From Voacanga thouarsii (taxonomy: Eukaryota > Streptophyta > Magnoliopsida > Gentianales > Apocynaceae), in NCBI GenBank assembly GCA_026120185.1, contig JANUWF010001109.1, forward strand, positions 2,534,001-2,598,000: 64,000 nucleotides of DNA, written 5' to 3'. The notes under the pieces were generated by a model. That model worked only from the letters and a program-made list of their open reading frames with translations. It had not been told where the DNA came from and did no database searches. The stretch's first letter is position 1; each line of letters starts with the position of its first letter. Of the stretch, positions 249-61,505 are shown in pieces. Position numbers and translations under genes: made by a program.

Positions 249-251
249 AAT

Positions 252-5227: not shown

Positions 5228-5230
5228 AAT

Positions 5231-22244: not shown

Positions 22245-22809
22245 AAAGAGTTTGGTATTAGAGCAATGATAGCTTTGATTCCTTTTTATGTGATTTGACA
22301 ACTCAATTAACACATAATATTCAAAATTATGAAGAGATTCTTGAGAGGTTTTGCCTTATTGTTCGTCTTTTGATCCAGACCAAACTAAATGATTAGTTCG
22401 CCCTTTGTTGAGTCTCTAAAATCCTAGGATAATCTGATTTGGTTTTTCTTCATTTAGATCTTAGAAGCTTTGTTCTTCTTTGGTTCTAATTTGAATTCCA
22501 ATTGAGTACCTATAGTTCTGCTTCCTTATTCTTGAATCCCTTTGTTGTTTCAAGGGTATTGGACGAATTTATAGTAGATCTTACTACTTTTCTTGTGGGT
22601 CCTTAAAGCTTTAATCTTCAAGGGTTTGTTAGAATGTAGGAAGATAGCTTGTATCTCTTTAGATACTAAATTTCTCTATTTTGGTTACTTTGAATTGTGC
22701 TGTGAGTTTGGGTCACTTAATCAATTTGTTCGCGAAGAAAAAAAAAAAAAACCACCCAAAGATTACATTAAAAGAGTTTGGTATTAAAGTAAGGATAGCT
22801 TTGATTCCA
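21763..22809 (+). repeat. 526-bp tandem duplication of LTR end plus primer site
   Basis: 21763-22288 and 22289 to about 22809 are direct copies. Each contains the 3' half of the LTR, the A-run, CCACCCAAAGAT, and the primer site GAGTTTGGTATTA followed by GATAGCTTTGATTCC. The element thus has two primer-site copies and 1.5 LTRs at its 5' end. Confidence 0.9.
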
Positions 22810-30276: not shown

Positions 30277-31228
30277 TTACGAAAATGACTCCAAGCATTC
30301 ATGAAACCCCATTTAAATATGGAAGCTTCTTGGGGAGCAATTAATGACTTAAAGGAGCTTAATGTGCTAACAATTGATGGAGAATATCAAGAGAAGGCTA
30401 AAGAAGATGGGAAGGAAGCCAAGGAGATTGAACAAGGTTGAGCGCGCTTGGAATTGAGCGCCATCGTCTAAATAGCAAGCAACCAGAACTAGCTGCATTG
30501 GTATATATGGTGCCAACCGTGTTTTGGATGAAAGTCCTCTGCGAACAGTGTCCAGCCGGAGCCAACTCAAGTGGCATAGCCGACACTGGCTCATTTCAGG
30601 ACCCAATCCCCTGTTTATGTGTTTTAATGTTGTCTCTGGCTTATTTCTACTTTTAATACTTTGTAATGACCTTTTTTTTTACTCAAATTTATCTTAGGAC
30701 CTTATTAAACTAATTGTTAGGGTTGGGATTGTAATGTAAATACCCCTTTATGTGATTCAACAACTAAATCAACACATAATATTCAAAATCATGAAGAGAG
30801 TCTCGAGAGGTTTTGCCACTTTATTCATCTTTTAATCTAGACCAAACTAAGGGATTAGTTTGCCTTTTGTTGAGTCTCTAAAATCTTAGGATAATCTGAT
30901 TTAGTTTTCTTCATTTGGGATTTAGAAGTTTTGTTCTTCTTTAGTTCTAATTTGAATTCGAATTGGGAGAATCTATAGTGTTCTACTTCCTTGTTCTTGA
31001 ATCTTTTTGTTGTTTCAAGGGTATTGGGTGAATCTATAGTAGATTTTACTACTTTTCTTGTGGGTTTTTGAAGGTTTGATATTTGTAGAAAAATAGCTTA
31101 TATCTCTTTAAACACTAAATTTCTCTGTTTTGGCTACTTTGAATTGTGCTATAAGTTTGGGTTACTTAATCACTTTATTCACCAAGGAAAAAGAAAAAGA
31201 AAAAAAAAACCACCCAAAGATCATATCA
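30189..31228 (+). repeat. 3' LTR of the gypsy element
   Basis: It starts TGATGAAACTCCGCTTC right after the polypurine tract and ends GATCATATCA before the TSD ATAAC. It aligns throughout with 21213-22244. Confidence 0.9.
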
Positions 31229-31233
31229 ATAAC

Positions 31234-31420: not shown

Positions 31421-32929
31421 TTTTTTTAGTATCAATGTAAGGTTGTTATTGTTGATTCAACTTTATCATCTTTAACTTCCATCAATTGGTTAGTTCTCAG
31501 AGGAGAAAATGTTGCCAGAAAAAAAAGAATCAAAACTGGAGGTGGGTTAATAACCAAATAGAGTAGTAAAAATCTCCAATTAGAAATTTGGATTATAACT
31601 AGTACTCATTTTTTCTTTAGACTTACCTCCACTTGATTGTCAAGAAAAGTGAGGTGTAAAAGTAAGCATAATCCTCATTTTCAAAATCTAATATTTGGTT
31701 CACTATTTATAGTCTGTGAAAGGAATCTAATTCCTTAGATTTGGAAAAATAAATATAGAATATTGAAAAAATGAATCCTTCTTGGGATATGGTATTGTGA
31801 TTTCTTTTCCAAGGATTGTAATAATAAATGATAAAAAAATTTACAACCAAAGATCAATAAGAAAATTTATTCTAATCTACATCATTTACTTTATCTTTTA
31901 CATTTTTCCTTACTGATTCTTTTCCCTCACACCTCCCCCAACATAGTAGTGTATTAAAAAATTCTTTATTCTTAATTATAATAATTTTTTAAAAAAAATT
32001 AAAAGGCTAAAGTAATTGTAAAATTTTAATTTAAAAATTATATCATGATTGAATTAATTACATGAGAAGAAAATCCATTGAATTTTCTATAGATATTTTA
32101 ATTTGATAATAATCAAATGTTATGTTTATCAAATATTAGAATTTGAACTCAACTTAAAAAATAATTGAAATTTTGAATAAAATAAAATAAAATATATATT
32201 TAAATATGTGAAAAATAGTATTTATATGATTTTTATTTATTATAACTATTTAAAAAAATAATTTATAATTAAATTTATAACAATATGAAAGATATTTAAA
32301 AATAATTTTAAATTTTTTATACGTATAGTGTTTTATTCTAAAGTATTAAAAAATATTTTATATTACTTTTCTTTAATATTTTTTCAACATTCCAAATAGA
32401 GGAATGTAATCTATCCAGAATTATATTCTGTGGATTCACTTTCCTAATATTTAGATTCCGTAACATTGCTTTCCTGTACGCCAATCAAACAATGCCTTAG
32501 AGCTAGTTAGATTAGACATTTTTTTCCAAGAAGCTAGCAAATTGAATATAACAACAATATGTTATAAATTGAAAATTGAGAATTCAGAGAATTGAGAGAA
32601 AGACTCGAGAGAGTTAAGAAAGAATTGAGAGAAGTGTAAACAGGAGAGGAAAATAAGAGACATATTTATCGAGGCAGGAAGAAGAAAAAAAAAAGGGTCG
32701 TTGCATGCAACAGTTCAATTATAAACAACCATCATAGTGGGCTAGTGAACTTGGAGGTGCCAACTACATGATATTAATATATTATAATAACAATAGAAAC
32801 TATTTATGCAATTAATATGTTAATGATAGATAAAATTTTTATAAAAATATAAATTCTAAAAATAAAAGTATGAGAAAAATAAGAAAATAAAATACATAAA
32901 ATAAAACATTTACCTAGTATTGTGAACGC
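31421..32929. other. AT-rich, no gene seen
   Basis: Non-coding. A C-rich CACACCTCCCCCAACA (about 31930) could be an LTR end but no partner was found. A purine-rich, GAGA-type stretch lies at 32580-32700. Confidence 0.55.
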
Positions 32930-35330: not shown

Positions 35331-38065
35331 GATAGGTGATCTTCTTTAGATTCTTTTTGTCTATTTTTCTGCATTCTAGATTCTCTAGAGTTAGAGTTCT
35401 ATCTTCATTAATTTTTTGTTCGTCATTGGTATGTAGGTTTTGGATTTCAAGTTTCTTCTCCTATCTGTCTGTCTTTTTCTTCTTTCCAAATTTATTCTTT
35501 TGTTAATTATTTTGTTTTACCTTATTGTTTTACCTTGTTTTCCGTTTCACTCATTGATGACCTAATTTGATGCAATAATTATTTAAATTAACTTTTGTTG
35601 AAGTTTTGAAAGAAATTCCTATGCTTTCCCTAGATAGTTGTATTCACAATGAACATAGGCTTGTATTTGCTATCATGTTTCACAACATTCTCCATGTATT
35701 TGGATGATTTACTAGTTGTTGTTAAGCAGTTATTTTCACAAATTTATGACCCAAAAAAGATCGCGTACAATGATTATGGAAAATATTTTATTGTTGGAAA
35801 TGCATGATCAATAATTAACGATTTTTTGATAATTTAATTAAGTATTTAAAATTAATTAATTAAATACTTATTTAATTCACTATATTTGATAACAAATAAT
35901 GTAAGTGTTTAATTATTTTGATATGTCTGATACTATATTTTTATTATCACTTAACTGATTAAAATATACTGAAATCTTATTATAAATTTTAAATGAAATA
36001 AACATTACTTAAATTTGAAATATAAATATATTAAATAATCATCTAATTTTTTTATTATTTTTAATTTAACTAAAAACAAGATAAGTGTAAAATGAATCAT
36101 AATGAATTTAATCTTTAATTTTAGACTTCAAATTTTAAAATTTAATTTTAATGTTTTAAAATTTAATACCTAAATATTTAGACTTTAATTTTATTAAATA
36201 GACTCTGAATGTGAATCCATTGTCGTTGGAGATTATTAACACAAAAAGAAAAAACAGAGGAAAATGGTCATAGTTGTTGATCCAATAGTGACAGAAAACA
36301 TTTCTATAACCATCGGCAATGGATTTTCGTCCATCAAATTACAAATTTCTCATCAATTTAATTGAAGACCAGAAAAATGGTAAATTAAAAAATTTATTAG
36401 TGACAAAATTTCAATCATTAATCGACAACTGATGGCTCAAGGCATTTCTACAAGGAATTCCCTCACTTATAGTATTAATTCTAAGATGAATTAGTGATGG
36501 AAAATCCTTTGTTGATTAGAGAAATAGCGCATAGGTTAAATGGTTTGGCGACAAAAAATCTATCAGATATCGACTATGCATTTTCTTACCATTGATCAAA
36601 AAAGAAATTTCAATTGTTGATATGATTTTTTTTTATAAAAAGGTTTATTTTATGCATTCCAACCACCTGAACACAGAGAAAAAAATCTTCTAATTATTAT
36701 CCATGATAACGAAATTATATAATCGAATATGTGGAACAATGTAAAAACAAAAATGCATGAATTACATATTAAATAAACTTAAATTACTTCAATCATCCAT
36801 TGTAATAATCCAAAAAAATAAAATAAATGTCTAATCGACTAATCCGAGCTTACTCCTTGATCCAACTCTACAAGTCTTAGCTAGAAGCTATAATTGTTAA
36901 GATCTCCATAATCCTTGTTAGTTTTTACTATTGTAACTAATAAAGTATCTTCCCAAAAAGTGCTAGACCAAGTTTTCAAATATATGTTTTTGTTTATATT
37001 TCTCTTTCTAGAATCTCTAAAGTTGTAGTTATTTTTTCGTCAAATTTTTATTCATCATTGGTCTATAGGGTTTGGGTTTCAATTTTATCTCTAGATCTAT
37101 TTGTCTTTTTCTTCTTTCCAGATAAATTCTCTTGTTAATTATTTTGTTTTAACTCGTTTTCTCCACTTCACTCACCGATGATATAATTTTATACAATAAT
37201 TGTTTGAATTAACTTTTGTTGAAGTTTTGAAAGAAATTCTTGCGCCTTCTCCAAATACTTGTTTTCCCAATTATTGTTATGTATCATAACATTCTCTATA
37301 TGTATGGATGGTTTACTAATTATGGTTAATCAGGAGATTTCACAAATTTATGACCCAAAAAAGATTGTGTATGATATCTTATGAAGACAATAACATATTT
37401 TATTGCTAGAAATGAATAATAGGTAATAGAATGGGAATCCATTTCCACTGAAAATCCTTTGTTAGTCAAAGAAACATGGTATAGGTCGGGTGATTCTGTG
37501 ACAAAAAATCTATCACTAATTGGCTATGGATTTTCTTGCCAATGATCAAAAAAGTAATTTCTATGGCTGATTTGATTTTTGAAAAGACAGAATTGGATCA
37601 TCTATGCATTCCAACACCTCAAATAACACAAAAGAAGGAGGAAAAGTCTGAATAATCATTCACAATAACAAAATAACAAAATCGAGTATCTAGAAAAATT
37701 TAAATAGAAAAAATGCACCAATTATCTATTAAATAAATTTAAATTACTACAATTGTATACCATAATAATCATCAATAACAATAATCCAACAAAATAAAAT
37801 AAATATTCAATCAATTAATCTGAGTTCCCTATTTGATCAGAAGAGTCCCTGCAAGTCCAATTGTGCCTTGATGTCTACGTAAAGGATACCATCTACTATA
37901 TCTTGTGGTGAGTCTTATCTAGAAGTTACGATTGTTAAGATAGCCTCTGATCATAACACTCTTATAACTCTTGAAGCTATCGTCTGTAATCCTTATTCAA
38001 CTACTGTAATTAACAAAATATTTGCCAAAAGAAGTCCTATCTCAAGTCCTTGCACATGTGATAGG
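35330..38065. repeat. Diverged tandem duplication, unidentified
   Basis: Three blocks occur in the same order twice: 35385-35810 with 37005-37420 (share TTAACTTTTGTTGAAGTTTT and TTTATGACCCAAAAAAGAT), 36490-36830 with 37450-37800 (share GACAAAAAATCTATCA), and 36830-36970 with 37800-38040. Unit one has about 650 bp of AT-rich sequence (35815-36480) absent from unit two. There are no recognisable proteins. It may be part of an old DNA transposon. Confidence 0.7.
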
Positions 38066-38119: not shown

Positions 38120-38122
38120 ATT
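38120..38122. other. Left TSD of the CACTA element (ATT)
   Basis: ATT here and at 54952-54954, directly outside the terminal inverted repeats. Three base pairs is the size expected for CACTA insertions. Confidence 0.8.
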
Positions 38123-38149
38123 CACCACTAGAAATAGGCTAATTACTAA

Positions 38150-38850
38150 CTAACAAATTCTACTGGCAATTGTCCAATTCTTATTGGTAATACTAGATTA
38201 TCAACAGATTCCCAACAGAATTTGGTTCATTGGTAAAATACTTGTTGAAAGTTGTTACCAACAAGAGTTTTTTTTTAAGTCTGTTGGTAGTTGCCAATAG
38301 ATTTCATAGTTGGTAATATTAAATTTTGGTTGGTAATGATTTTTGTTTTTGGAATTAAGTATTTTCTATTGGTAATTTTATTAATTTACCAACAAACTGA
38401 CTATCTGGTGAGTAAAGTTGTTGGAAATTTTCTAATTGATTCTTTTGTTGGTAATTTAGTTGGCATTTTTTTTAATTGATTATTTAATTGGTAATTTTTC
38501 AATAGTTCTTTAGTTGGCATATTTATTTTGTTGGTAAAAATTATACATTACCAACAAATGATTTAGTTGGTAAATGTCGAAGAGCATCATCCCAATTGAT
38601 AGCTTACCAATTACAATTCAGTTGGTAATGTTGTAGTATAAAAATGTTATATTGTTGATAAGTCCCAACAGAAAATTTGTTGATAAGCACCTACAAATTT
38701 CTATTGGTGCTTACCAACAAATTTTTCTGTTGGTAAGTGTATACCAATAGAAAATTTGTAGGCAAGTATTTGCAAATTTTTATTAGTAAGTACTAACAGA
38801 TTCTGTTGGTAACTAATATTACCAACTGATATACTATTGATAACTAAAAT
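38150..38850. repeat. CACTA left subterminal repeats
   Basis: Many copies in both orientations of a TTGGTAA / TTACCAAC motif at short intervals. The same motif fills the right subterminal region. Confidence 0.85.
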
Positions 38851-39099
38851 TATATTTATATAATCCATACACATATTTGATAAAAGCAATCTCGCATAAT
38901 ATAGTACATCCATATCAAAATTCATATGTCCATATTGAAAGTACATCAGTATCCGTAATTTATATATTTAAAACACTACCTAGACCAACCACCATCCATA
39001 TCAAAATTACATCAAACTTTGATGTGGAACAAAAAACTAAAAAAAAAAAATTTTTTTTATAGCCTCAAAATAATATTTCACTTCAGTAGTCCAAATATG

Positions 39100-41780
39100 A
39101 AATAAAATCAAGAACCAGCTCGTGAAGCATTCTCTCCCTTAAGTTCCTTGACTTCTGATATTAAGGATTTCACCTCGAATTGCAAGCGTTTATTTACTTT
39201 TCATAATTCTTGAATAGCCTTATAAAGTGATTCATCAACACTATGCAATTCTAACCTTTAGACATTCTGCAAATTGTGCTGATGAATAAATGAAGATGTT
39301 GACTTGTATGCAATAGATTTCTTTAGGCAACTCGAATGAGAGATCCCATGCCATAGATTGTATTACCCTTTTTTGGTGGTCGATGGTCCTACAACTCACA
39401 ACCAAATATTAATCTTGTTAATTGGTTTTGGTTGCTCCCCTTCAAGTGTTTGATTTGCAATTAGGTTATTCTCTTTTTGCAATTCCTCTTGGTACCTAGA
39501 TTGCAAAAATGATAATACCATAGTACAAATAATAATCCAATAACAAAATTTATACATGCTAGCAAAATAGCCCTAGAAAAATAGCCCCAACCAAGAAGTA
39601 GTTTCCAAAAAATCATTCTTTAGCAAATAATCACTCAAGACCCCATAAGCCTAAGCAAACTCCTTAAACTGCAAAAGATGCATGTTCACATCACTAAAAG
39701 ATCCTTTACACCCAATAAAATAAAGCCACAATTCAATATTTCAACTCTCAGTGGAAAAATAAACACACAACATATATGGATATCCATGCTAATAACTAGC
39801 CTAATATATATGAACGCACTCTTCCAACACGAAAGATAAAATCATAATATTTGCAAACCCACAAGACTTTTTTTCAAAGGTAGTTCACAACTTTAATTGA
39901 CTAACAAACTACAAAGGAATATTCTTCCCAAACCTAGGTATGAGCATGAATTCCAACTTATATCAGCATTTGAAGCACATAAATGACATCCAATTCTTTT
40001 TTTAAAAAATTAGTTTATTCATAACCTACAACAATAAATGCATATTCTAACACAAAAATAATGTAAATAATTATCATCTATTGGCCCTAAAATCTCCACA
40101 TTGTTGACCTTACAAGCAAATTATCCATGAAATCTAACTTCTTATCATATCTCAACAACAAAACACACAATATCATCAACCCCCTTAATTAAAATATCGT
40201 ATCAACTAGATCACAGATAAAGATTCAGAAATCTAATACCTATCCAAAATTAAAGTAAACAAAACCACCAAAGAAAAAAAATCTCATAAAAAGAAAGAAC
40301 TAAAGAAAAGAAATCTCAATTCACTTCTCAAACATCAAAACCGATAAATAAAATGGTATTTTCTCGGGATTAGCAAATTCAAATGATAGAAATAGTACAA
40401 CAAATGCTACTAACATTCCACAACCCATTGCAAAAAATCAAACCAGAAAGAAACTAGAAAACACAGCCCTATTCCCTGGATATGATACTTACGTATATGT
40501 CCTCAGATCGCTTGTCAATAAAGACAAGTTTTGGTGCCTTTGGTAGCTCTTATTCTCCTCTAACATTAGTCTCTCATATCAGCACTTGCTCAACCTCATC
40601 TTCAATGTTTGTTGTGTGAGTAAAGACATATATGTCCATTTGCAAATATTCTCTATGATATTTCTCCTCATACGAAATCATCATAAAATGGAAATTATAA
40701 CGTATGATATAGAAGAACAATAATTACAAATATATTTCAAATGATAAATTAGAAGAAAAATCTATGTATAAAACAAGCTTTCTCTTATGTACAATTGTTG
40801 GGATAGACTGGGGGGGGGGGGGTAAATGAGTCAGATTGGGTCCAGATCACCCTATTCCGGACCTAACCCTATTAATGATATTTATACCTTATTTGAATAT
40901 TGTTAATATTGTATAGTTGCTGGGGATAGACTAGAAGTGTAAACGAGTCAGATTGGGTCTAGATCATTCTATTCCGAACCTAATCCGATTGATAATATGT
41001 ATACTTGACTCAATCTGAATACCCGCCAAGTATGATATAAAAATACCCATACCTGAAGACAAGGGTATCAAATCCGGGTCGAGTATACAATAATATATAA
41101 TATAATATATATTTTATATAAATATAAATATAATAATATATAATATATAATATAATACATATTTTACATAATGTTTAAATTAATTGGGTAAAACAAATAA
41201 ATGGGTATATAACTATAATACCTATATCCGAATTTAATTATATAGACTAAATGGGTAAACCAATTCTGGTCGGATTGTGTAATAAAATGACTATATCAAA
41301 CCCATTACCAATGAGTTTCGGATTGGGTCAGCTCGGGTCTGGGTATACCTAACCTATTGACAGCCCTAGGATAGACCCTTCTAAATGATTTGAGACCCCT
41401 AAAACACTCTTCTTGTTTACTGACATAGTCCTTGAAATTTTCTTAAAAGCATCACTATTCCGATATGCTCATAGCTCATTATAGTGCTCCTCTTTCATGA
41501 AATCATGAGAACTATGGCCAATTCATACTTCTTTTATCAAATACCTATAAATGTTATTGGCTTTCTTTTCCCATTCTGCCCTCATAATCAAATCATATTT
41601 GCTATTCTATTTTTATTTTTTCTGTAGTTTACCAATAAGAATTACTAAATCGGTATAATAAGCATAAAATACAACCTATAGCTATAATTTAACAAAAAAA
41701 AATTAATACTTACTACCCATTCAACGTACCATACGTCCTTTGTGTTAGGTGGAACCTTTTTCCAAGTAGGGTATTGTCCT
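39100..41780 (-). pseudogene. CACTA TNPA-like (plant transposase, Ptta/En-Spm type) gene remains
   Basis: Read on minus. Near 41600-41400: AEWEKKANNIYRYLI and SDAFKKISRTMSVNKKSVLG, like the conserved part of Ptta/En-Spm proteins. Near 40680-40500: KYHREYLQMDIYVFTH and VFIDKRSEDIY. Near 39380: KKGNTIYGMG, as in the family's VYGLGS block. At the end, 39240-39105, is a heptad-like KVNKRLQFEVKSLISEVKEL coiled coil, then a stop. The parts are separated by intron-like AT-rich stretches and by a MITE at 40810-41368, and contain stops. Confidence 0.7.
40810..41368. mobile_element. MULE-like MITE with 9-bp TSD
   Basis: Flanked by GGATAGACT (40801-40809) and GGATAGACC (41369-41377). It ends in TGACAGCCCTA, the inverse of the TAGGGCTGTCAATRGG tip common in plant Mutator-like MITEs. 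Its left end starts in a 13-base G run and is duplicated: 40800-40915 is repeated at about 40922-41035 with a 122-bp period, including the flanking GGATAGACT. Confidence 0.65.
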
Positions 41781-42779
41781 GAAAACATAGATTCTATGGT
41801 TGGACGAATAGATCACATTAGCTTGTTGAACGGCTAGGCATTGGAAAGAATCCTACAGTAAAATAATAAATGTTTAAGGATTTTTCTTGATACTTTTAGA
41901 ACAAATCCTAAATTTCAAAAAATAAAAAATTTGCAAATCACTTACTCATCTCCTTCAATCCAACATTCAATTTTGCCCTATGCTGGCAAATTAATAACTG
42001 AAAATAAGGTAATTGGTTGCATATTCTCTTGAGCTGGAGTAGACTCAATTTGGTCATTAGGAGTGATAGGCACAACTTGCTCATTGCAAGTAATTAACTC
42101 GGCTTGCTCAATACAAATCTCTGGCTGGACACTTTTTTGTAGGATGTCTACCATTCTGACCATCAGTAGGAACAGGTAATGTAGATGGTGGAGTATGAAA
42201 ATCATCCACGGCTCTTTGGCTAGTATTTGAAGAATTCTGATTCTCTATTAGGGGTGAATTCAGTGGCTAACCCTCGGATTCGTTGTTTGATTGACCTCCA
42301 CATTGTCCTACTTTTTGCCTCCCTTTTTTTTTTTACATTCATTTCATATTAGATGCCATCTGAAAGCAACATATAGATTGCGATTATATCTACTATTTAT
42401 AAAACAAGATTATTTGAAAGATAAATACAAAAAGAAGTGGATAAAAAAAAGAATGACAAATATTTCCCTAGCTAGTAGCTTAATAAATAGAAATATTTTC
42501 AGATAATATCACATTAATAGCAAAAAGATGATATCATGATGTAGTTGATTAGTTCCATTTTATTTCACAGTTCTTCATCATCATCCTCTATTGTAGTTTC
42601 CCTTCTCCTTCTCCTTGATGTATCTATACTTTCTAACTACCCATAAATTCAAATGGACAATATTTCCAATGAAAACAACAACCATAAGATATATCCATGT
42701 TAATAGAATCCACAATTTCTATTATCCCAAATGTTTGGGATAGTCTTGCCTCGAGTTAGGAAACACAGAAAGAGCTTAA
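41781..42779 (-). other. Remnant of TNPA-like 5' part or spacer
   Basis: Holds an open stretch at 41978-42205 (Gln/Pro/Ile-rich, no motif). The conserved TNP2 catalytic region, expected around here on minus, is not seen, so an internal deletion is likely. Confidence 0.4.
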
Positions 42780-43543
42780 CTAGAAAAGAAATACAAAAAA
42801 TGCAGAAATATAAACTATATACAAAAATAGATTGTAAATCCAAGTCTTACATTTCGAGATTTAGAAGAAAATATTGGGTGTGTGCTATTGAAAACCTTCC
42901 AAGCTTCTATATCAGAAGGATGACTAATGGTGCTATGAAGGGATTCATATTCTGCATGCTATCTCATATGCTCAGCTATAGCTTTTGATGTATACAAGCA
43001 TGGCAATCTTGGCGTTAATGGAAGTTAGTGCATTCTTGCATATGCTACATTTTTCTCCACACCTGAACTTCCTTTTTTTGGCTTCCATCTAGGATGGTTG
43101 CAAAACATACAATTTGTCAATCCAACATACTCTTTTCAAAAAAGCATACAACTATTGACACAACAATCTATTTGTTCATATAGAAGTCCTAACCTAGATA
43201 CAAGATTTTTTATCTCATAAAAGTTTTTAGGTAGCTTATCCTCTTCCAGTGTGACATCTTTAATCAAATGTGATATTATATCATAACATGATTTAGGTAA
43301 ATTATAATTAGACTTAATGTTCAGAAGTTGCATAGCTGTGGATATCTGGGAGTGACTACAGCCTGGCCATAAAGGCTCATCTGCAGCATGTAGCAGATCA
43401 TAGAAACTTTGTGCATTCATATTAAGATTTTCTTCCATCTGGATAGTTTTATTAAACCTTATATCATATCTTATTGCATCAAATACCATTTTCCTAATTT
43501 GATTGCTTACCATAGGGCTTTCATTCTTTTCATTATCAACCTC
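42780..43543 (-). pseudogene. CACTA TNP2-like transposase, middle part
   Basis: The open frame 43136-43513 reads NAQSFYDLLHAADEPLWPGC, TAMQLLNIKSNYNLPKSCYD, LPKNFYEIKNLVSRLGL and QIDCCVNSCMLF, a hallmark of plant TNP2. After a stop it continues: CMFCNHPRWKPKK, AEHMR-stop-HAEYESLHST, then ISHPSDIEAWKVFNSTHP and NVRLGF (42830-43080). The stop at 42959-42961 replaces Trp. The Transposase_21 catalytic part that should follow NVRLG is absent. Confidence 0.9.
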
Positions 43544-46108
43544 TATAACATCTCACATTTTTCAAACAGAGTGGGCCTTATATTATGGGATGTCGCCCCG
43601 TCTAATCTCCTAGATAAGAGGTTTTTGTAACAATTGTAGCTTAATAAAACTATGCATTCTTATATTAAAATACAAGAGATACATATGATCCAATATTTGA
43701 TACAGATGTCCAAAAGAATGCAAGCTTATTATACATACACAAACTCCATCTAAGGTCTTAGGTATATATACAACATTTGTTGCATCTACAGAGTAGCATG
43801 AACCTTCAGGAACTTACTACTGCGATCTGGACTCTAAAATTTTAAGAGATGAAATAACACACGTGCAAATATAAAACTCAACGAGTCCCGTTTGTGCAAG
43901 TATTTTTTTCACTAAAAATAATTTTAAATAAGGTAGCATTCAAAATGTAGGTAAGATAGTGTACTTGAATTCATTGAAAAAAAATATGAACAAGTAATAA
44001 GGATTCAACCTTATAAGAAAAGGTATGGAGTAAAACTCATGTGCTATTTTTGAAAAATGTTCAAAATCTCATAGGGCAAGATATGCCAGTTCATGGTTTG
44101 TATGAGAGGAACTCAGTGAATTCCACTCAACATACATGTAAAACAATCATGATTCATGCCAGAAGTTAGTGTTTACGCCAGGAAGATAAGATAATGCTTA
44201 CACAAGGAAGACTAGATAGTGCTTACACGAGGATTTAGCTAATCCCAATATTTTATCGCCCTGTTTAGAGTAAGACGAATCTCAAAACTGATTAAGTTAC
44301 TTAGGTTCATCTATCTCTAACACAAGTTAGTATAAGGAATCTTTCCATTGATTTGCAAATCAATCGTTCATTCTAGTAGAAAGATTCATGTCTTGGGAAA
44401 ATTACTTGGTTTTGTTTCGTAGACATTTTTCCATGTTTAAGTGATCTCTGAGTAAAGAGCTTTTGGCAAGGTATTTAAGGGGCAGTTCTTTAGATTCAAT
44501 TCTTTCATATAAGGGTGCCTGGCCTTTTTGTCACGCTAGGATTTCTCTCTCTTGAGGAGAAAAGCTCTTGCTGAGTACTCAACGCTTACACTGATACGCA
44601 TGTTCATGTCCAAGTGATAAAAAAGGTTTAATATTCCTTTTCCATAACTTTATCATGCTGTGTACTGTAAGAAGAAAAGTGTCATAAAACATGGTTTCAC
44701 CAAGAAGTGGAAACATGCTCAAGCTATTGACAAGAAAAGAAATTCATGAGGTTCATGTGTAAAATGGAGCATGCTTTCATTCAAACATGATAGGGTATCC
44801 TTTTGGTATAAAACACATTGCTAAAGCAAAGGTTAGAAAATAGAGCAATTCACTAAAACATGTAGGAATCTTTACGTCAATAGGGTAAAGGGTCCATGTT
44901 CAAATATACAGAAAAACACTTAGCTAAAATAGGTTTTGGAAACCATGGGACTCACCATGGTTATCTATTAGTCACCCATTCACCTTCGATAGCTTACAGA
45001 TTTCTTAAGTTGGGTTTGTCTTTTTAGGAGCAAGGGCCTAACTTCTTTCTTCTTTCTTTCTTTCCTGTCCTCTTTCTCTCATTTTTCCTCTCAGTCTCCT
45101 GATTTCTTTTTTCTTATCTTCATTTTCGTTTCTCTCATTCCTTTCAGTTTTCCTCTCTTTCTTCCCCCTTCTCCCATATTTATAGTGTTTCCTTCATGAC
45201 TTAGCAACCTCTAAAAGGGTATAGAACCTTTTCTTCATAACCTGGCAAAATTGGAGAAGTTTAGAAGGTTGAAGAACATGATAGAAGATAAATAGAAGTC
45301 TTGGGAAATTTCATGAAATCACATGTGGTCCAATGAGCCTTTAGCTATACTTAAATATCTAAAAATCCATTAATTAAAGTGGGCCACCACATAATCATTA
45401 TGGTGGGCCATCTATCATCATAACATAACATTTCTCTCTCCTCCTCTTATTAGGCCATCACTTCATGGGCCACCTACCAATAAAACATAATATTCTCTCT
45501 CTTTTATGACTTGACAATCTTTTAGAAGAGTTTAGAAGTTAGGAGAAGATAATGGAAGATAATAGAATGTGATAGAAGCTTATGTAAAAAAATAGAAGAC
45601 ATAGGAAACTTCTTTAATCATGTAAAGTCTAAAAGCCTTTTATGATAAGCTTAAAAGGGTTTATTAATGAAATAGGCCACACATATAATTGGTGTCATGA
45701 GCTTAGCGGGCCACCTAATATAAGGCTTCATCTTATCCCTTTCTCTTCTTTTATGACTTGGTCAGTATAGAACTTAGAAGAAGGTAATGGAAGCTTATGG
45801 AAAGTGTAGAAACTTCACTTAATCATACATGGTTAAAAGACTTTTTCTAAGGTCAAATAACTTCTCTACAACTATCTAAACCTTATTAAATATAGTGTGC
45901 CACTCTCAATTAATGTCTTAGGCCCTATGGGCTATCCATTCTCAAGAGAGAATATTTTCTCTTTCTTCCTTTCATTGGTCTACTATTTAGTGGGCCCTTC
46001 TCTTTCCATTTCTATTTCCAAATAACTATATATATATATATATATATATATTCTTTTTCTTATCAAATAATCTATGCATTAAATAATTACTTAGGGAGGG
46101 GTATTACA
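43544..46108 (-). mobile_element. Solo LTR (2.57 kb) inside the TNP2 gene
   Basis: Flanked by exact 5-bp TSDs ACCTC (43539-43543 and 46109-46113). On minus it starts TGTAATACCCCTCCC and ends GAGATGTTATA (G-to-A in the terminal TGTTACA form). It has three spaced repeats of a GCTTACACGAGGA-like unit at 44168-44235. The TGTAATACCCC...TGTTACA ends recall Tekay/Del-type chromovirus LTRs, which is an inference. Confidence 0.85.
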
Positions 46109-46430
46109 ACCTCGACACTATTTCTTTGCTATGAACTAAAAATATAAGATTCCCAATAGGCATGCCATTGATAGTAATTTGGGATAAATCTCTTCTGACA
46201 CAAATGAAGCTTTACATCATCAACATTAAAAACCTTCGGTTTTTGCACTTTGAGCATGGGCACCTTAGTTTTCCTTCACTAGTAAAATCAACTTGTGTAG
46301 TTGTAAATTAAACAAAATTATCAATGCCTTGAAAAAACTCCCTTGTTAACCTTTTTTTATTAGGTAAGAGCCTATTATACATCCATGCTCGATCCTCTCT
46401 CATTGTATCAACCTATGTTTGGAGACAAGT
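46109..46430 (-). pseudogene. CACTA TNP2-like transposase, N-terminal transposase-associated domain
   Basis: On minus: REDRAWMYNRLLPNKKRLTR and FFQGIDNFV, then TSEGKLRCPCSKCKNRRFL and SFICVRRDL. This is the Transpos_assoc domain that precedes TNP2, with its CPCxKCxN core intact. The solo LTR (43544-46108) divides it from the rest. Confidence 0.88.
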
Positions 46431-46736
46431 TACATCACCCATTCACTCTAAATACACACTTAAGCTTTTACATATTTCCCAGGCATATACATTTAGCTCA
46501 ATAATTTATATTGTTACTACTAAAGGAAAACCAGAAATTGGATAGTCATATAGTAAATATCTAATATGGGACATTTTTTTATCCAAAAAGAATAGTTGCA
46601 TAATTTCATTTAGATAAATAGATGCACCAAAAATATATTAACATATATGCTTATTGCAATGAGTGCTTTGATTGTTAAAAGCTATAGCAATGTAGAGAAG
46701 GGAAATGAGAAATAAATACAAACATATACATACATA

Positions 46737-46772
<36 letters not shown>

Positions 46773-47984
46773 GATAAAGCTGTTTAATACTTAAAAAAAG
46801 TTAACTAATTAGTCAATAGTTTAAATTTTAATAGAAGGGTATAATTGAGACTTTCTTCACATATGAAGGGCAAAATTTAGAGTTTCCATATTGCTAATAA
46901 TGCACAAGAAAAAGTCATAATTACTACTTCTTTACAAAATACAGCCAAATACATACCACAAATTTCAATTACCTAGTCAACATAATATGCGTAATATTGC
47001 ATGCTCATACTATGAAAGCAAGAAAGATAGGCATCAACAATTAGAATTGAATATTCAACTTACAATTATTTGATATAAATAATTCAGTAAAATCAACACT
47101 AAAAGGGAGATATGTGCATTTCAATCAAACTAAAAACCATCTCAAATTTAAAATACCAAACTTGCAGTCCGTATGCCATTGTCTATAAAGCTATTGACAT
47201 CTACGTTTTCACACTTTTGTTCACAGTTGAGACCTAGTTTCCTAATTCTCTAGCTTTGAACAAATCATGGAATTGCAACCCATCTTATTCCCTTTTTTGC
47301 CCGAATTTCTTATTTTTAACTCCAGGCAGTGTAGCAGATATCTATTATTTTATTTTGATTTGTATAATTGATTTAATTTTGGTTGTTTTTAAAGCAAGCA
47401 ATTCCATTTAAATGAATATACTATCTATATTGTAATTACTATTTAAACTTGTTCTTACATAGATAAGAAGTCAGTTATCTGTTAACATAGAAATTTAATA
47501 AGTACAAAAATCCGTGTGATGACATATACCTTAAAATATGATTAACTATTGATAATGTAAGAGAAGACATAAACTAATAAGCAATTTGGTGTCAAATCCA
47601 AAATATAGAAAAGAAAGAAAGTAGATATGACAAGTAAACTTCGCATTTAGTAATTCTGGAAAGGTTCAGAGCAAACAAGATAAGCTCGTTGCATCTACTG
47701 CTTTGAGTACTTGTTTTACATCCTATGGTTGAACACTTTATTAATCACCTGCTACAACTTCTAATAGATCTATCTCACCAAGGAGGTACATCACTACATT
47801 TAGAATTTATAAGAATGGTTATTTACCTAAGAGAGCCCAATATGCCTGATCTACAGTAGAAATAACCCTCCATATTAAGGAAAAATTGCAGGTGAAATCT
47901 TTCTACTAATTACTTAGCTTGAAGATAGGCCAAACCACCAAAGTGACCCTACAATTATTTTAGAAAATCTTCAAAATTGGGAAA
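46431..47984. other. CACTA interior, non-coding
   Basis: AT-rich, with a (TA)n tract at 46741-46769. It may include the transposase promoter and 5' UTR. No coding motif seen. Confidence 0.5.
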
Positions 47985-48180
47985 GTCCACAACCGCTACC
48001 AGAGGTATACACTAGGTAAAGCCCACCGCGGAGCCCTAGCCGATAAAGAACCCGCATAGTTAAACTAGCCTAGGCAAGCCCTAGCTGATCGGTTCCCCAG
48101 AAGGCCAAGAGTTCCTCTCTTCAGGAGTCGAACACATGACCTCACAGCTAACGTTCTAGTACTCGACCAACACGTATGTA
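47985..48180 (-). mobile_element. tRNA-derived SINE
   Basis: Read on minus it has an A-box-like TGGTCGAGTAC (about 48160-48170) and a B-box-like GTTCGACTCC (48124-48134) at pol III spacing. The body is GC-richer than its surroundings and ends near CTCTGGTAGCGG. It abuts the LTR that begins at 48191. Confidence 0.65.
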
Positions 48181-48190
48181 GAAGGGTTAT

Positions 48191-49317
48191 TGATAGGGAC
48201 TAAAATCATCATCATTTTACAAGTTATTTGAGGTTATTTTGAGATACTTTTGCTATAATAACTAGACATATTTCTTTCTATTTGATATTTTACTTGTAAA
48301 AAGTATTTTTGATAAATTTGTGCAGATTTAAGTTTATTTTAAGTAAAAATATGAAATTTTCAGAACAGACTTGGCGCTAGGTCTAACCAAGGGACCAGAC
48401 TCGGGTCCATTCTGGTCAAATAGTAAAAACAGAGAAGAACAGAATAGACCTGGCGCCAGGTGGGCCGATTGGACCCGACACCAGATCCACTCTGCCTAGA
48501 GGCGGTTGTGCGCGAATTTGGTATTTTTTAAAGGATTTTGGTATTTTCTAAATTTTACTCAGACTAGACTTCTCAAGTAATGAATTTTGGTATCAAGAAG
48601 GCTTATAAATACAAGAAAAATACAAGAGAATGGGGTGACTTGAAGGATCCAAGCTAGCTACTCATTTACCACTCAAAGGAGATTGTTCGAATGAGGTTTT
48701 CAAGAGAAGAAGAATGGCTTGTCTATGAGTTTTATCTTTTATTCATTGTTTAATTTTCTAAAACAACGATGTGCTTAATGTTTTGATTGTAATTAAATAT
48801 TATTTTGGATATTATAACTTTGAATTAATTGAAATTTTTTATCAATCTATTTTTATCTTTCGAATTTGATTACTTGTTATCATTAGTTATTTATGCGAGT
48901 TCTTCTAATTGACTTGGGAAATGATGTTAGGAGTTCATTACATTGATTTTGTGTTTGTCAAATCTTAATGGATTTGGAAAACAAAGTTAAGATTAAAGGA
49001 CTAAAGTGATCAAAGATTAGTTGATTTCACCTCGAGCAAATGGTCATTAGCTAATTTTATGTTTATAATGTATGAGTTTAATACATCTTTTGATTGCTTT
49101 AGTTTGATTGGGAAATCTGCTAAATAAATCAAAGGATACTAATTCTATAGATTGGGAAAGAAGTGGAATCTACATAAGTCAGTTCGTGACTTAAGAAATA
49201 ATTAAATTTTACTTAAGTTCCTTCATGATGCCAAGATGACAATTGATTGTGATGAATGCTAATTGATTCAATATTGTGTTTTTAAAATAATTGTCTAGTT
49301 ACATGAAATTGCATCCT

Positions 49318-49365
<48 letters not shown>

Positions 49366-49598
49366 CTTTATTTATTTTCCTTTTTAGTCTCTTCTTATTT
49401 TATTGGCTAAACAATAAAGATTTTGATAAAGTAAGGTGGGAGCCTAAGTTCTCATAGATTCGATACTTACTATACCCTATACTATACGATGGGTATACTT
49501 GCCCGTATGTGTGATTTTAGTGGTTGACATTTTAATTAAAACTTGATTGATTGTTTAATTTGTTGGTAATATTTTCTACACTTATGGTAATGTATTCA
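48191..49598 (+). mobile_element. Solo or isolated LTR, same family as 23871-25679
   Basis: It begins TGATAGGGAC and ends GTATTCA. The first 150 bp and the last 100 bp align with the reverse complement of 23871-25679. No clean TSD was found and no internal retroelement sequence adjoins it. It contains a (TA)22 tract at 49321-49364. Confidence 0.65.
49321..49364. repeat. (TA)22 microsatellite
   Basis: An uninterrupted 44-bp TA tract inside the LTR. Confidence 0.95.
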
Positions 49599-51316
49599 AT
49601 TTAAATCACAGTTTTTAATACAAAATTCTATAGCATTTACAGAATAGATACACATTTATGGCAAAGCGAGCAACAAAGTGGATTTAAAATGTTCAAATTA
49701 ATTTGCAGAGACTAAGGTAACCAAACCAGCTAGAATTTTGGTAAATAATGTACTAATCTTGACAAACTAAAAATTCAAATACAAAGGTGAAGGTAACCAA
49801 AACAACTAAAATTTGGGCACAATAGTTAACATTCTTGGTGCAATTATTTACCTTCAACTAAAGACAAAAGAACAATGTCAAACATTTCCATTCGAATCGT
49901 AAAAGCAGCTTAACATTCAAGCTATATTAAAAATTTCTGTATACTGTAATGGTATGCACCTATACTATAAAATTAAAGTTCCCAATGGTCACTTTCAGGT
50001 GTTTGTGTCTCTAGCCGTGGCAAGGGGAACCACTATGGGGAATTCTAAATAGTCAAAGTCATTTGTTATCCCAACCTATTATGAATTTCAAAAAAAAAAA
50101 AAAAAAAAAAGAATCCCACTAATTAAAAGATTACCATATCACAAACAATTAACATTCAAATCACCCAATTTATCTGCTAAAATTAATCACTGGGACTGAA
50201 AGAACACAAATTTAGACAACAAAAAATCTACAATATTCATCATCAGGGCCACTTAAAACTGGCAAAAGAAGAAGAACACAGAACACCAGACTTTAATGGC
50301 AATTCACAAGTTAACACACTCAGAAATACAAATAGAAGCAAAAAGAACGAACCTTGAATGCCAGTTGATTAGATTCTTAGTCGGAGGCAAATATCAGTTA
50401 CCCAAAAGTGACTATTGTGAGTGGGTTTAGCTTTTGATGAGTTGCAAAATAGGGGCTTCGGTGGTTTTTGAGGGTTTGACCAGTAGACAGTTTGGGAAAG
50501 CTAAGGGAAATAATGCAAATTTGGTGGTAAAATGTTTTGGGGAAAAAAATTGGTCTGTATTTTTACCGCTTCATTAACTTTTCATTTTTTTCCTTTTAAA
50601 TTAATAAAATTAAATTTGATAATTTAGAAATATAACCAATTTGTTTTCGAATGTGGTAATTTCATATAGAGCATTGTTTTTTGGTTATTTTCGAATGTGG
50701 TAATTGTTTTAATTTTTAAAAAATAAAAATAAAAGAAATTTATTTTTTAAAATACATAATCTCGGGTACCAATAGCTTTAGTCATTAAAAAAGAATAATT
50801 TTAAAAATTATATATATGTGTGTGTGTGTGTGCGCACGTCAAAATATTGAATCATTTTCATTAATTTATTTTTAATACATGAAAAGATACATGTTTGAAT
50901 TAAATTAAAGATTTATTATGTAACTAATAAATTAAAATATGTCTAAAAGGAGATTTGATAATATAATTGGTTTACATTGATAGGATTTTACCAAAATTTT
51001 CAAAGAAAGGAGAGGTATTGTAATAATAATAATAATATATTATTATATTAAATATGAATTAAAATAATAATAAAAATACTTATAATATATACTTAAAATT
51101 TAGAAATTGGGAAGTATATATTAAAGATAAATTAAAAATACTTAAGACCTAGAAATTGGGAAGTATAATACATATACATATATACATACATATAATACTT
51201 ATAAAGATAGAAATAGCATATTTTAAAGATAAATTAAAATGCCAATAAAATACCTATAAAATAATATTTTTTGTGTGTATATAAAAAATAATAAAAATAT
51301 CTTGTGCATATAATAC

Positions 51317-51354
<38 letters not shown>

Positions 51355-51949
51355 TGTGTTCATATTATACATCAAAATTACGTAGTTTTAAATTATTCAA
51401 TTTTGTTATTCCTTATTTTGTTATGGTGGTAGATAAACAAAGTTGTAAAGAATTTCATTTTGGGAAGGAAAGGACATGAAATCACCTAGCACAAAAAATG
51501 CCTACACATTTTCTTTTTTTCCTTTTTTACTTAAAAAAAATTTGTATAACTTTTGAAATATTTTTTTAAATGAATTTAATTTTGAGGATCCCTAAATGCA
51601 ATTGGTATATATATATTTTTTTAAACCTTGTAATTCTTTAATACTAAATTTAAAACTCTTCTAATTTATGATCTAAATATAACTACATAAATATATCTTT
51701 TTAAGATGATATAAACATAACCAATTGGCCATATTGCTTTTAAAATAATATACAATGTCATTATTTGATTTGATAAGTCATAATTATAATATAATTATTA
51801 GGCTCAATTTTGGAAATCATTTCAATTTCAATAAATTTAATTTTAATTTATTAAATTTCGAAGTTGTTCCCAAATATATCCTCAATATTTTTATATAAAT
51901 ATCAAGTACTAAGTTACTGCTTAATTACAATGATTGAATTTTACTTTAA
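49599..51949. other. CACTA interior, AT-rich, no gene seen
   Basis: Non-coding, with poly-A (50090-50110), (TG)n (50817-50832) and (TA)n (51330-51354) tracts. Confidence 0.55.
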
Positions 51950-54255
51950 ACAAATGGTAATTAATAAGCATAATATAGAAATTAATTTTGAGCTCTTATA
52001 TAGAGATTGTACTAGCTTATGCGGCAAAATATATCTGATTACTTTTAAATTTGATAACAATAATTTTTTTTTTTACCAATTGTAACAAATTTAACAATTG
52101 GATCTTTAATTTGATAGGTTTATCTTTATAAATGAGTTAAGTTTAGGCTGTTATATAGAAATTATACTAACTTATGTGGCAAAATATATCCAATTACTTT
52201 AAAATTTTGTTGTGATATTTTTTTTTAGCAATTTAAACAAATCTAATGATTGGATTGTTAATTTGATATGCGTATCTTTATAAATGAGTTAGGTTTTGAT
52301 ATGTTATATAGAGTTTATGCTAGATTATGTGAAAAAATATATCCGATTATCTTCAAATTTGATAGCAAAACTTTCTTTAGTAATTTAGGAAATCTAACGG
52401 TTGGATCGTTAATTTGATACACTTATATTTATAAATATGTTAGGTTTGGGCTATTATATAGAGATTATACTAGATTATGTAGAAAAATATATTCGATTAC
52501 CTTTAAATTTAGTCAAGATACTTTTGTTAATAATTTTAACAAATTTAATAGTTGGATCGTTAATTTTAAATACTTTTCTTTAACAATGCGTTAAGTTTTG
52601 TACCTTTATACAGAGATTATGCTAGATTATATAGCAAAATATATCTGATTACCTTCAAATTTGATCATAATACTTTTGTTAGAAATTTTAAAAAATCTAA
52701 CAATTGAATTGTTAATTGATATGCTTATTTTTATAAATGCGTTAGGTTTTAGGCCGTTATACAGAGATTATGTTAGATTATGTGGCAAAACATATCCGAT
52801 TATCTTGATATTTAGTCACAATTTTTTTTTATAGAAATTTTAACAAATATAACAGTTGGATCATTAATTTAATATGTAGATCTTTATAGATGAGTTACGT
52901 TTTGGTCTGTTATATAGAATTTATGCTAGATTATATGAAAAAATATATCTGATTACTTTCAAATTCAGCCACAATACATTTTTAGCAATTTTAATAAATC
53001 CAATGATTGGATCATTAATTTATTATACTTATATTTATAAATGTGTTAGGTTTTAGGCCATTATATAGAGACTATACTAGATTATGTCGAAAAATATATC
53101 TGATTATCTTCAAATTTAGTCAAGATACTTTTGTTACCAATTTTAATAAATCTAATGATTGGATCGTTAATTTAATATGCTTATCTTTATAAATACGTTA
53201 AGTTTTGAGGCTTTATATAGAGATTATGCTAGATTATATGGCAAAATATATTTGATTACCTTCAAATTTGTTCATAATACTTTTGTTAGCAATTTTAACA
53301 AATATAATGGTTGGGTCATTAATTTGATATACTTATATTTATAAATGCACTAGGTTTTGAGCCGTTATATAGAGATTACACTAGATTATTTGACAAAATA
53401 TATACGATTACGTTGAAATTTGGTCACGATACTTATTTTTGTAATTTTAACAAATCTAATGGTTGGATTGTTAATTTGATATGCACGTCTTTATAATGAG
53501 TTAGGTTTTGATATGTTATATAGAGTTTATATGAGATTATGTGAAAAAATATATCTGATTAACTTCAAATTTAGCTACAATACTTTTTTAGCAATTTTAA
53601 TAAATTTAATGGTTAGATCATTAATTTGATATGCGTATCTTTATAAATAAGTTAGGTTTTGGTTTGTTAAATAGATTTTATGCTCGATTACGTAGAAAAA
53701 TATATCCGATTACCTTCAAATATGCTCATAATACATTTTTTAGAAATTTTGATAAATCTAACGGTTAGATTGTTAATTTGATATACTTATCTTTATGAAT
53801 GTGTTATGTTTTAGGCTGTTATATAGAGATTATGTTAGATTATGTGGCAAAATATTTTTGATTACCTTCAAATTTAGTTAAGATAATTTTGTTAGAAATT
53901 TTAACAAATCTAATGGTTATATTGTTAATTTGATATGATTATCTTTAGAAATGAGTTTGTTTTTAAGCCTTTATATAGTGATAGTGCCAGATTATATGAT
54001 AAAATATATTCGATTACTTTTAAATTTGGTTATAATACTTTTATTTTTAGCAAATTAAACAACTCAACGATTGGATTGCTAATTTAATATGCTTATCTTT
54101 ATACATGCATTAAGTTTTGGGTCGTTATGTAGAGATTATGCTAGATTATGTAGCAAAATATATCCGATTACCTTAAAATTTGGTCATAATACTTTGTTTA
54201 GCAATTTTAACAAATATAATAGTTGGATCATTAATTTGATATGCGTATCTTCAAC
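51950..54255 (+). repeat. Satellite-like array, about 15 copies of 152 bp, with 4-unit higher-order structure
   Basis: Anchors (the GTTAGGTTTTG-like start of each unit) lie near 51980, 52134, 52286, 52437, 52588, 52739, 52892, 53043, 53195, 53347, 53498, 53649, 53801, 53953 and 54107, at 151-154 bp spacing. Each unit carries TTATATAGAGATTATGCTAG, AAAATATATCCGATTACCTT and GGTTGGATCGTTAATTTGAT or close variants. Units four apart resemble each other more than neighbours do, at 606-608 bp. The array is inside the CACTA element, next to its right subterminal repeats. Confidence 0.93.
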
Positions 54256-54289
54256 AAATCTATTTTTCTTCTAGTTAAACTTCAACTAA

Positions 54290-54945
54290 CTACCCACTTC
54301 AGTTGATATTTCATTGGAACATCGGCAGGAAAAATATTCTCCTCCCTTTTGCTAACAGATTACTATAAAATATCGTTACCAACTACGCACAGGTTATCAT
54401 TAATCTGTTGATAAATATTTTTTCACTTGTTTACCAACATATTACCAACAGATTACCAGCACAAATATTAACAGCTAAATACACATAGTTGGTAATTTTG
54501 TTAGTAACTTGTTGGACATTTATTTACTATATTTTTAATAGATATTTTAGTTGGTAATTTTGTTGGAAAAAAATTAACCATCACATTATCAACTATATTA
54601 CCAACTAAAATACCTACCAACTACCTATGCCCGTTGGTATTCTATTGGTAAATTGAGGGGAACAACATGCCCTCCCTATTACCAACAGATTACCATTAGA
54701 CATAATTACCAAATACTTGCATTTTGTTAGTAATTGGTTAGTAAATATGCTTGTTAACGAACATATTACCAATAGATTTCCTACCGAAAAATCACCAACA
54801 TAATATACACAATTGGTAATTTGTTAGAAAGTAACTGAAATATAACGCATTCCACATTTGTTGGGAATCTATTGCTAATTTGTTAGTAATTACCAAATGA
54901 ACCTGGTTTGTTGGGAATGATCTGCTAGTAATAAGCTTTTTTCTA
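54290..54945. repeat. CACTA right subterminal repeats
   Basis: Repeated TTGGTAA / TTACCAAC motifs in both orientations, like those at the left end. Confidence 0.85.
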
Positions 54946-54954
54946 GTAGTGATT

Positions 54955-55186: not shown

Positions 55187-55191
55187 TGAAT
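55187..55191. other. Left TSD of the 55192-61505 LTR element (TGAAT)
   Basis: TGAAT is repeated at 61506-61510. Confidence 0.85.
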
Positions 55192-55676
55192 TGTTGGGTT
55201 TTATCATGTATTCCTAATCTGATTAGGACAAAGTGGTTTGATTGAAAATATATTTTTAATATATTTAGAATTAGAAAATTACTATTATCCTATGTATATT
55301 AGAATTAGGAAGTTACTCCTACTACATCCCATGTTAAGTACGAGTCTTATGACATTGGTACCTACGTATGGGTGATGTCATGAGCTTTTTAAACTATCCT
55401 AGTTTGTTTTGGTATAGCGAGTATTATGGGGCATATAGGTGTAGGTTATATGAGTGTATGAGTGGTGAGAGACAGGGTGTGTACAAAGGATTTGTGCAAA
55501 TACCAAGAATATCCTTGTAAATCTCCCAATAGCTGTTAATAAAGCGTTTCTTGATATTTGTCATGGACGTAGGCATGGTTAAGTAAGTCAAACTATGTAA
55601 ATCGTTTGTGTCTTGTTTTATTCTTCATTTTCATTTTTCTATTCTCGTTAAATATCCTAGTTTAGATTCTCTAACA
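55192..55676 (+). repeat. 5' LTR, 485 bp
   Basis: It starts TGTTGGGTTTTATC and ends CTCTAACA. It has an AATAAA signal at about 55550. It pairs with 61021-61505. Confidence 0.88.
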
Positions 55677-60875: not shown

Positions 60876-61020
60876 GGGATCATACTGATTTGGGTGTTTA
60901 ATTAGGTACCAATGAAACTTTAACAGTTATAAAGGTCAATGGAGTAAAGAAGATTGCGACTTTGATGTTGTTGTATATCTTTAAGACTGATGAATACAGA
61001 ATACAAGCTAAGGTGGAGAA

Positions 61021-61505
61021 TTTTAGGTTTTGTCTTACATTCCTAATTTGATTAGGACAAAGTGGTTTAATTAAAAAAATATTCCTAATATATTTAGAAT
61101 TAGAAAGTTACTATTGTCATATGTATATTAGAATTAGGGAGTTACTCTTACTATATATCATATTAATTAGGAGTCTTATAACTTTGGTACCTATATATAT
61201 ATAGAGTCATGAAATTTTCAAAGTGTTTTAGTGTTTTCTAGTGTATCCAATATTATAAGGCGAATGGGTGTAGGTTAACTGAGTGTATGAGTGATGCGAC
61301 ACAGGGTGTATACAAAGGATTTGTATAAATACCAAGAATAACCTTATGTAAATCTCCTAATAGCTGTTAATAAAGTATTTTGTAATTCTCGTCTTAAATG
61401 TAAGCTTGGTTAGATAAGTTCAATTATGTAAATTTTTTTATGTCTTATTTTATTCTTCATGTTCATTATTTTTGTTCTCATTATCCTAATTTATATTGCC
61501 CAACA
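61021..61505 (+). repeat. 3' LTR, 485 bp
   Basis: Same length as 55192-55676. Its first bases have decayed from TGTTGGG to TTTTAGG. It ends CCCAACA before TSD TGAAT. Confidence 0.87.

What the first reader, a model, noticed from the sequence alone, without database searches (positions are those of the whole stretch)
51950..54255. Satellite-like array with higher-order structure inside a CACTA transposon
About 15 units of 151-154 bp lie next to the right subterminal repeats. Unit types recur every four units: anchors 52286/52892/53498, 52437/53043, 52588/53195 and 52739/53347 are 606-608 bp apart. For example, the GAGTTAGGTTTTGATATG form occurs at 52286 and 53498. Four-unit higher-order repeats normally mark centromeric or subtelomeric satellites; here the array is born inside a mobile element, so it could be a satellite in the making that can be spread by transposition.
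Basis: seen in the sequence. Interest (0 to 1): 0.75.

Follow-up and report, generated by a model that had tools for sequence, protein, structure and literature searches.

The report
Decayed tandem array inside CACTA transposon
An old, broken plant jumping gene carries about fifteen worn copies of a 152-base repeat, some of them probably once copied in blocks of four; similar arrays inside this kind of jumping gene have been described before, and nothing seen here shows that this one is growing or spreading.

Summary
The array is real: fifteen units of about 152 bp at 51982-54251, inside a 16.8-kb CACTA element (38123-54951) with CACTA-type ends, an ATT target-site duplication, TTACCAA-rich subterminal regions on both sides and broken tnp2 transposase on the minus strand. 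The array is therefore on the 5' side of tnp2.

The four-unit pattern is weak. Significance depends on the test: mod-4 p is 0.0008 in u02-u13, a trim chosen after seeing the data, but 0.07 over all 15 units, and family-wise p for the best lag is 0.07-0.21 in the identity tests over all 15; a rare-allele test fails.

Block copies are little closer than any two units (79% on average), so this is no homogenised higher-order repeat; 'a satellite in the making' is not supported. Arrays inside CACTA/En-Spm elements are in print (Chenopodium; Atenspm/ENSAT1). No other copy of the element could be examined. Verdict: new member of a known kind.

The parts
38123..54951 (-). CACTA (En/Spm-type) transposon, 16,829 bp, degenerate; strand given is that of tnp2
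   Evidence: CACTA-type ends on both sides, 3-bp ATT duplication, subterminal repeats on both sides, tnp2 fragment
38120..38122 (.). target-site duplication ATT, left copy
   Evidence: read
38123..38138 (+). left terminal inverted repeat, CACCACTAGAAATAGG (fourth base of CACTA changed)
38139..38860 (.). left subterminal region rich in TTACCAA/TTGGTAA
   Evidence: 18 TTACCAA (both strands) in the 738 bp from 38123, 0.5 expected
42818..42958 (-). fragment of tnp2 transposase
   Evidence: Pfam PF02992 Transposase_21, E 4.9e-8, 32.9 bits against a cut-off of 28.6
43139..43552 (-). open frame of 138 aa, probably the tnp2 part before the Transposase_21 domain
   Evidence: just upstream of the PF02992 piece on the same strand; no Pfam match; one unnamed relative, 54% identical over 74% of it; assignment to tnp2 by recalled resemblance
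46132..46275 (-). possible Transpos_assoc remnant, weak
   Evidence: PF13963 E 0.051, 14.2 bits, below its cut-off of 27.7
51982..54251 (+). tandem array, 15 units (u01-u15), consensus 152 bp, 29% G+C; a decayed stretch of unit may reach left to about 51950
   Evidence: four-unit block identity 0.824-0.836 at offset 4 for blocks starting at u02, u03 and u04; mod-4 residual p 0.0008 in u03-u11, a post hoc choice
54252..54936 (.). right subterminal region rich in TTACCAA/TTGGTAA
   Evidence: 12 TTACCAA (both strands) in the 700 bp 54252-54951, 0.3 expected
54937..54951 (-). right terminal inverted repeat, reads CACTACTAGAAAAAA on the minus strand
54952..54954 (.). target-site duplication ATT, right copy

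Best explanation
A short tandem array in the 5' non-coding part of an old CACTA transposon. A 152-bp stretch was duplicated in tandem and the array grew to 15 units by unequal exchange or replication slippage. At least one of those events, perhaps two, duplicated a block of about four units in what is now u02-u13, which left a faint 606-bp period. Exchange then stopped or became rare, and the units have since diverged by point mutation. The array is passive cargo: it lacks the element's own subterminal motif, so it is unlikely to be a binding site for the transposition proteins. Shown: array, element, its ends, broken tnp2, weak period 4, no motif sharing. Inferred: the order of events, the mechanism of growth, and the absence of function.
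For: 15 units, pairwise identity 71-89%, mean 79%, with no recent, nearly identical copies. Excess at lags 4 and 8 inside u02-u13. u04/u08 and u05/u09 at 86%, u02/u10 at 84%; u04/u08 join in the unit tree with support 93, u02/u10 with 74. Kimura distance of the five lag-4 pairs in u03-u11 is 0.15-0.25, against a mean of 0.26 for all pairs. TTACCAA: 18 and 12 times in the two subterminal regions, 2 times in 2270 bp of array, 0.5 expected. tnp2 is in pieces.
Against: No other copy of the element was examined, so a younger relative with a homogeneous array is not excluded. The period-4 signal does not survive every test. The tree also joins units at other distances, such as u05/u14 with support 82. 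The decay expected at array edges is not clear: u14 (75%) and u01 (77%) are the least like the others, but u15 at the right end is the most alike (83%). No precursor of the unit was found, so growth inside the element is inferred.
Confidence: 0.72

Rival explanations
1. Captured satellite: the array is a piece of a satellite that existed elsewhere in the genome and was picked up by the CACTA element, as argued for the 171-bp array in Chenopodium quinoa.
For: No precursor of the unit in the rest of the window. The right end is sharp: the last unit is the one most like the others, as a cut from a larger array would leave it. A printed case exists (PMC8978399, sections 10 and 15).
Against: The array is nearly a whole number of units (14.9), which is weak evidence. 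The genome was not searchable.
Confidence: 0.22
2. Satellite in the making: the element family carries and spreads this array, and some copies have expanded into free satellite arrays.
For: Printed relatives in which CACTA/En-Spm elements gave rise to satellites: Jozin to CficCl-61-40 (PMC7320549, passages) and Atenspm to ENSAT1 (table rows); one review lists Atenspm beside centromeric repeats of Arabidopsis (PMC8909793, passages).
Against: Units here are 11-29% diverged with no sign of recent homogenisation, tnp2 is broken, and the left end is mutated.
Confidence: 0.12
3. The array is an enlarged subterminal region that binds the element's transposition proteins.
For: It lies directly beside the right subterminal repeats.
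Against: TACCAAC and TTGGTAAT are absent and TTACCAA occurs twice in the array, and the unit shows no similarity to either subterminal region above resampled sequence.
Confidence: 0.04
4. The four-unit period is chance among 15 unequally diverged units.
For: Family-wise p 0.20 with unit effects removed and 0.07 without, over all 15 units; rare-allele test family-wise p 0.49.
Against: Mod-4 p 0.0008 in u02-u13, post hoc; 22 of 75 best local partners at lag 4 against 7.9 expected; 18-mers concentrated at lags 4 and 8.
Confidence: 0.18

Closest known systems
CACTA element of Chenopodium quinoa with a 171-bp, 32.5-copy array (PMC8978399, sections 10 and 15 and passages seen)
   Same: CACTA element of nearly the same length (16.5 kb) with an array of nucleosome-sized units inside it, near one end
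   Different: There the array is longer, near the 3' end, and present in several elements with consensus monomers 97.7-98.8% alike; here it is on the 5' side of tnp2 and its units are strongly diverged. The two units show no similarity above shuffles.
Atenspm / ENSAT1 of Arabidopsis thaliana (table rows seen in PMC9659126 and PMC6947457; the original paper was not seen)
   Same: En/Spm-like element giving tandem repeats; one table names the 5' UTR as source, the same side as here
   Different: ENSAT1 is listed as a satellite; no free array of the present unit is known, and none could be sought
Jozin tnp2B to CficCl-61-40 satellite of Chenopodium (PMC7320549, abstract and passages seen)
   Same: Tandem array arising from a CACTA element
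   Different: About 40-bp unit from the tnp2 domain; here a 152-bp unit for which no source in the element was found

Membership tests
CACTA (En/Spm) transposon | terminal inverted repeats beginning CACTA | tested here: met
   right end CACTACTAGAAAAAA; left end CACCACTAGAAATAGG, one change inside CACTA
CACTA (En/Spm) transposon | 3-bp target-site duplication | tested here: met
   ATT on both sides; three bases in AT-rich DNA are weak by themselves
CACTA (En/Spm) transposon | subterminal repeats on both sides | tested here: met
   TTACCAA 18 and 12 times against 0.5 and 0.3 expected
CACTA (En/Spm) transposon | tnp2 transposase | tested here: met
   one PF02992 fragment above cut-off, matching profile positions 3-34 of 213; frame broken
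Higher-order repeat of the centromeric satellite kind | multi-unit blocks repeated with an order higher than the units | tested here: inconclusive
   period 4 in u02-u13, not significant family-wise over all 15 in the identity tests
Higher-order repeat of the centromeric satellite kind | block copies far more alike than units within a block | tested here: not met
   four-unit blocks 79-84% identical at offset 4, 75-82% at other offsets
Satellite DNA | long homogeneous arrays at many or large loci | not testable with these tools
   2.3 kb here; no second array of this unit in the window; genome not searchable

The most novel reading that the evidence does not exclude
The 5' non-coding region of this CACTA family is a place where nucleosome-sized arrays with multi-unit order arise repeatedly, and younger copies elsewhere in the genome carry homogeneous 606-bp blocks that seed satellites at their insertion sites.
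Probability: 0.07. Interest if true: 0.65.

Novelty: new member of a known kind. Interest (0 to 1): 0.27.

Why it matters
It adds a case of a nucleosome-sized tandem array carried by a CACTA element, here on the 5' side and with a trace of four-unit block duplication. If that trace is real, multi-unit order can begin in an array of only 15 units at an ordinary transposon, which is a caution against reading such order as a mark of centromeres.

Tried and rejected
Origin of the unit: a profile search of the rest of the window gave nothing better than E 0.81, and local alignment of the consensus to the left flank (51600-51981), both subterminal regions and two other stretches was no better than resampled sequence. 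Weak blastn matches outside the array (31963-32370, 35832-36191, 18996-19144, 51032-51340, 51638-51819; E 8e-6 to 4e-4, low-complexity filter off) were not supported by the profile search. One blastn alignment of the array to itself ran left to 51733; the in-phase test supports a remnant only near the array (51950 on), not in the 152 bp before 51843.

Claim dropped on checking: that units decay towards both edges. It came from a u15 cut with 24 bp beyond the array; with that mended u15 is the unit most like the others. For this the best explanation went from 0.75 to 0.72, capture from 0.20 to 0.22, chance order from 0.15 to 0.18, and the observation verdict from confirmed to partly confirmed. 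One search also has those 24 bp in the blocks that start at u12, and the mean distance 0.26 includes them.

Homology with the C. quinoa 171-bp monomer: none above shuffles.

Canonical CACTACAAGAAA ends: no exact match in the window; the ends were found among near matches.

Host: not identified. The one protein relative of the 138-aa frame has no name. A photolyase-domain frame at 12732-13217 and copia-type reverse transcriptase at 17240-17710 fit a plant; this is inference.

Assembly artefact: the 15 units all differ from each other, so mis-assembly of identical repeats is unlikely; no reads were available.

Age: with recalled plant rates of 6.5e-9 to 1.5e-8 per site and year, lag-4 distances of 0.15-0.25 would mean roughly 5-19 million years; only a rough guide.

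Full report
What is there. TRF reports a 152-bp array at 51986-54251, 14.9 copies with 77% matches. Cutting on a conserved stretch gives 15 units, 150-155 bp apart. In the 147 ungapped columns, with u15 ended at 54251, pairwise identity runs from 71% to 89%, mean 79%. The consensus is 152 bp with 29% G+C. To the right the likeness stops at 54251. To the left a decayed stretch of unit may reach about 51950 (6 of 500 resampled sequences fit as well; 13 of the 45 bp are already array), but not the 152 bp before 51843.

Where it lies. The right end of a CACTA element is at 54951 (CACTACTAGAAAAAA on the minus strand). The left end is at 38123 (CACCACTAGAAATAGG, one base changed inside CACTA). ATT stands on both outer sides. 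TTACCAA, both strands together, occurs 18 times in the left 738 bp and 12 times in the right 700 bp, against 0.5 and 0.3 expected, and 5 times in the other 13.1 kb of the element outside the array, 4.2 expected. A fragment of tnp2 lies at 42818-42958 on the minus strand (PF02992, E 4.9e-8, above its cut-off). A 138-aa open frame stands just before it, and a weak sub-threshold Transpos_assoc match lies at 46132-46275. That 138-aa frame is the longest listed in the element, so the transposase is broken. Since tnp2 reads leftwards, the array is on its 5' side. Passages of PMC2613891 give the same plan for a 20.5-kb soybean CACTA element: imperfect CACTA inverted repeats, 3-bp duplication, asymmetric subterminal repeats.

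Four-unit order. In favour: of the lags examined, autocorrelation is highest at 606 bp (0.557). Four-unit blocks at offset 4 average 81.4% (8 comparisons), other offsets 75.1-79.3%. Shared 18-mers are 34 at lag 4 and 30 at lag 8, against 2 at lag 1 and 19 at lag 6. Lag 4 is the best local partner in 22 of 75 overlapping comparisons, 7.9 expected. Raw unit identity at lag 4 has p 0.0069 (0.0011 before a cutting error was mended). Against: family-wise over lags 1-9 that test gives 0.070, and with unit effects removed 0.20 (0.21). Mod 4 over all 15 units gives 0.069 with unit effects removed and 0.090 on raw identity (0.085). Only the first third of the unit shows the lag-4 excess. A rare-allele test gives p 0.068 and family-wise 0.49. 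The k-mer test gives mod-4 p 0.006-0.009 in one cutting phase and 0.028-0.051 in the other, with family-wise best-lag p 0.045-0.072 and 0.39-0.61. Dropping one to three end units gives mod-4 p 0.015 (u01-u14), 0.018 (u02-u15), 0.0019 (u02-u14) and 0.0008 (u02-u13), with family-wise best-lag p 0.10-0.13 in these four, the best lag being 9 and not 4 in u02-u15; the trims were chosen after seeing the matrix. My reading is that a block of about four units was duplicated once or twice in the middle of the array.

What that means. In homogenised higher-order repeats the block copies are nearly identical (recalled, from no call). Here they differ almost as much as any two units: Kimura distance 0.15-0.25 for the five lag-4 pairs in u03-u11, 0.26 on average over all pairs. 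So the order, if real, is a fossil of growth and not a sign of continuing homogenisation. Of the subterminal motifs, TACCAAC and TTGGTAAT are absent from the array and TTACCAA occurs twice, and the unit resembles neither subterminal region above resampled sequence, so it is not an enlarged binding region. No precursor was found in the rest of the window; birth inside the element and capture cannot be told apart.

In print. Section 10 of PMC8978399 describes a 16.5-kb CACTA element of C. quinoa with 32.5 copies of a 171-bp unit near its 3' end, and the array in further elements; section 15 argues for capture. Passages of PMC7320549 describe a roughly 40-bp satellite derived from tnp2 of a CACTA-like element, and cite Kapitonov and Jurka for satellite arrays from the internal region of an Arabidopsis En/Spm-like element. 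Table rows in PMC9659126 and PMC6947457 list Atenspm as source of ENSAT1, the former naming the 5' UTR, and PMC8909793 lists Atenspm beside centromeric repeats. A search for higher-order repeat, transposable element, CACTA and satellite listed 6 papers, none on such order inside a CACTA element by title or the abstract starts shown; four other searches were seen as listings too. The phenomenon is thus known and the present case is a further member; the side of the element and the faint period 4 are its own traits.

Limits. The genome was not available, so copy number, other copies of the element, and presence of the unit outside CACTA elements are untested.

Noticed in passing
window 55188-55676 and 61018-61505: Two stretches 79% identical, one just right of the CACTA element; the first is followed by a sequence like a tRNA-Met primer site (recalled), so probably LTRs of an old copia-type element.
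   Followed up: no
window 249-391 and 5228-5370: Direct repeats 98.6% identical around a piece with a sub-threshold copia-type reverse transcriptase match (780-1271): possibly a young LTR retrotransposon.
   Followed up: no
window 7517-8044: A 263-bp stretch in tandem twice, 95% matches, reading like copia polymerase (by eye).
   Followed up: no
window 21213-22808 and 30189-31229: A 530-bp tandem duplication (93.6%) whose sequence recurs 8-9 kb away at 82-83%.
   Followed up: no
window 12732-13217 (-): Open frame with the start of a DNA photolyase domain (PF00875), probably a piece of a cryptochrome/photolyase gene.
   Followed up: no
window 48717-49305 and 24132-24749: Inverted copies 74% identical, one inside the CACTA element: probably another mobile element nested in it.
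   Followed up: no
window 54124-54251: The last unit u15 is the most like the other units (83% mean), although array ends usually diverge most (recalled).
   Followed up: partly
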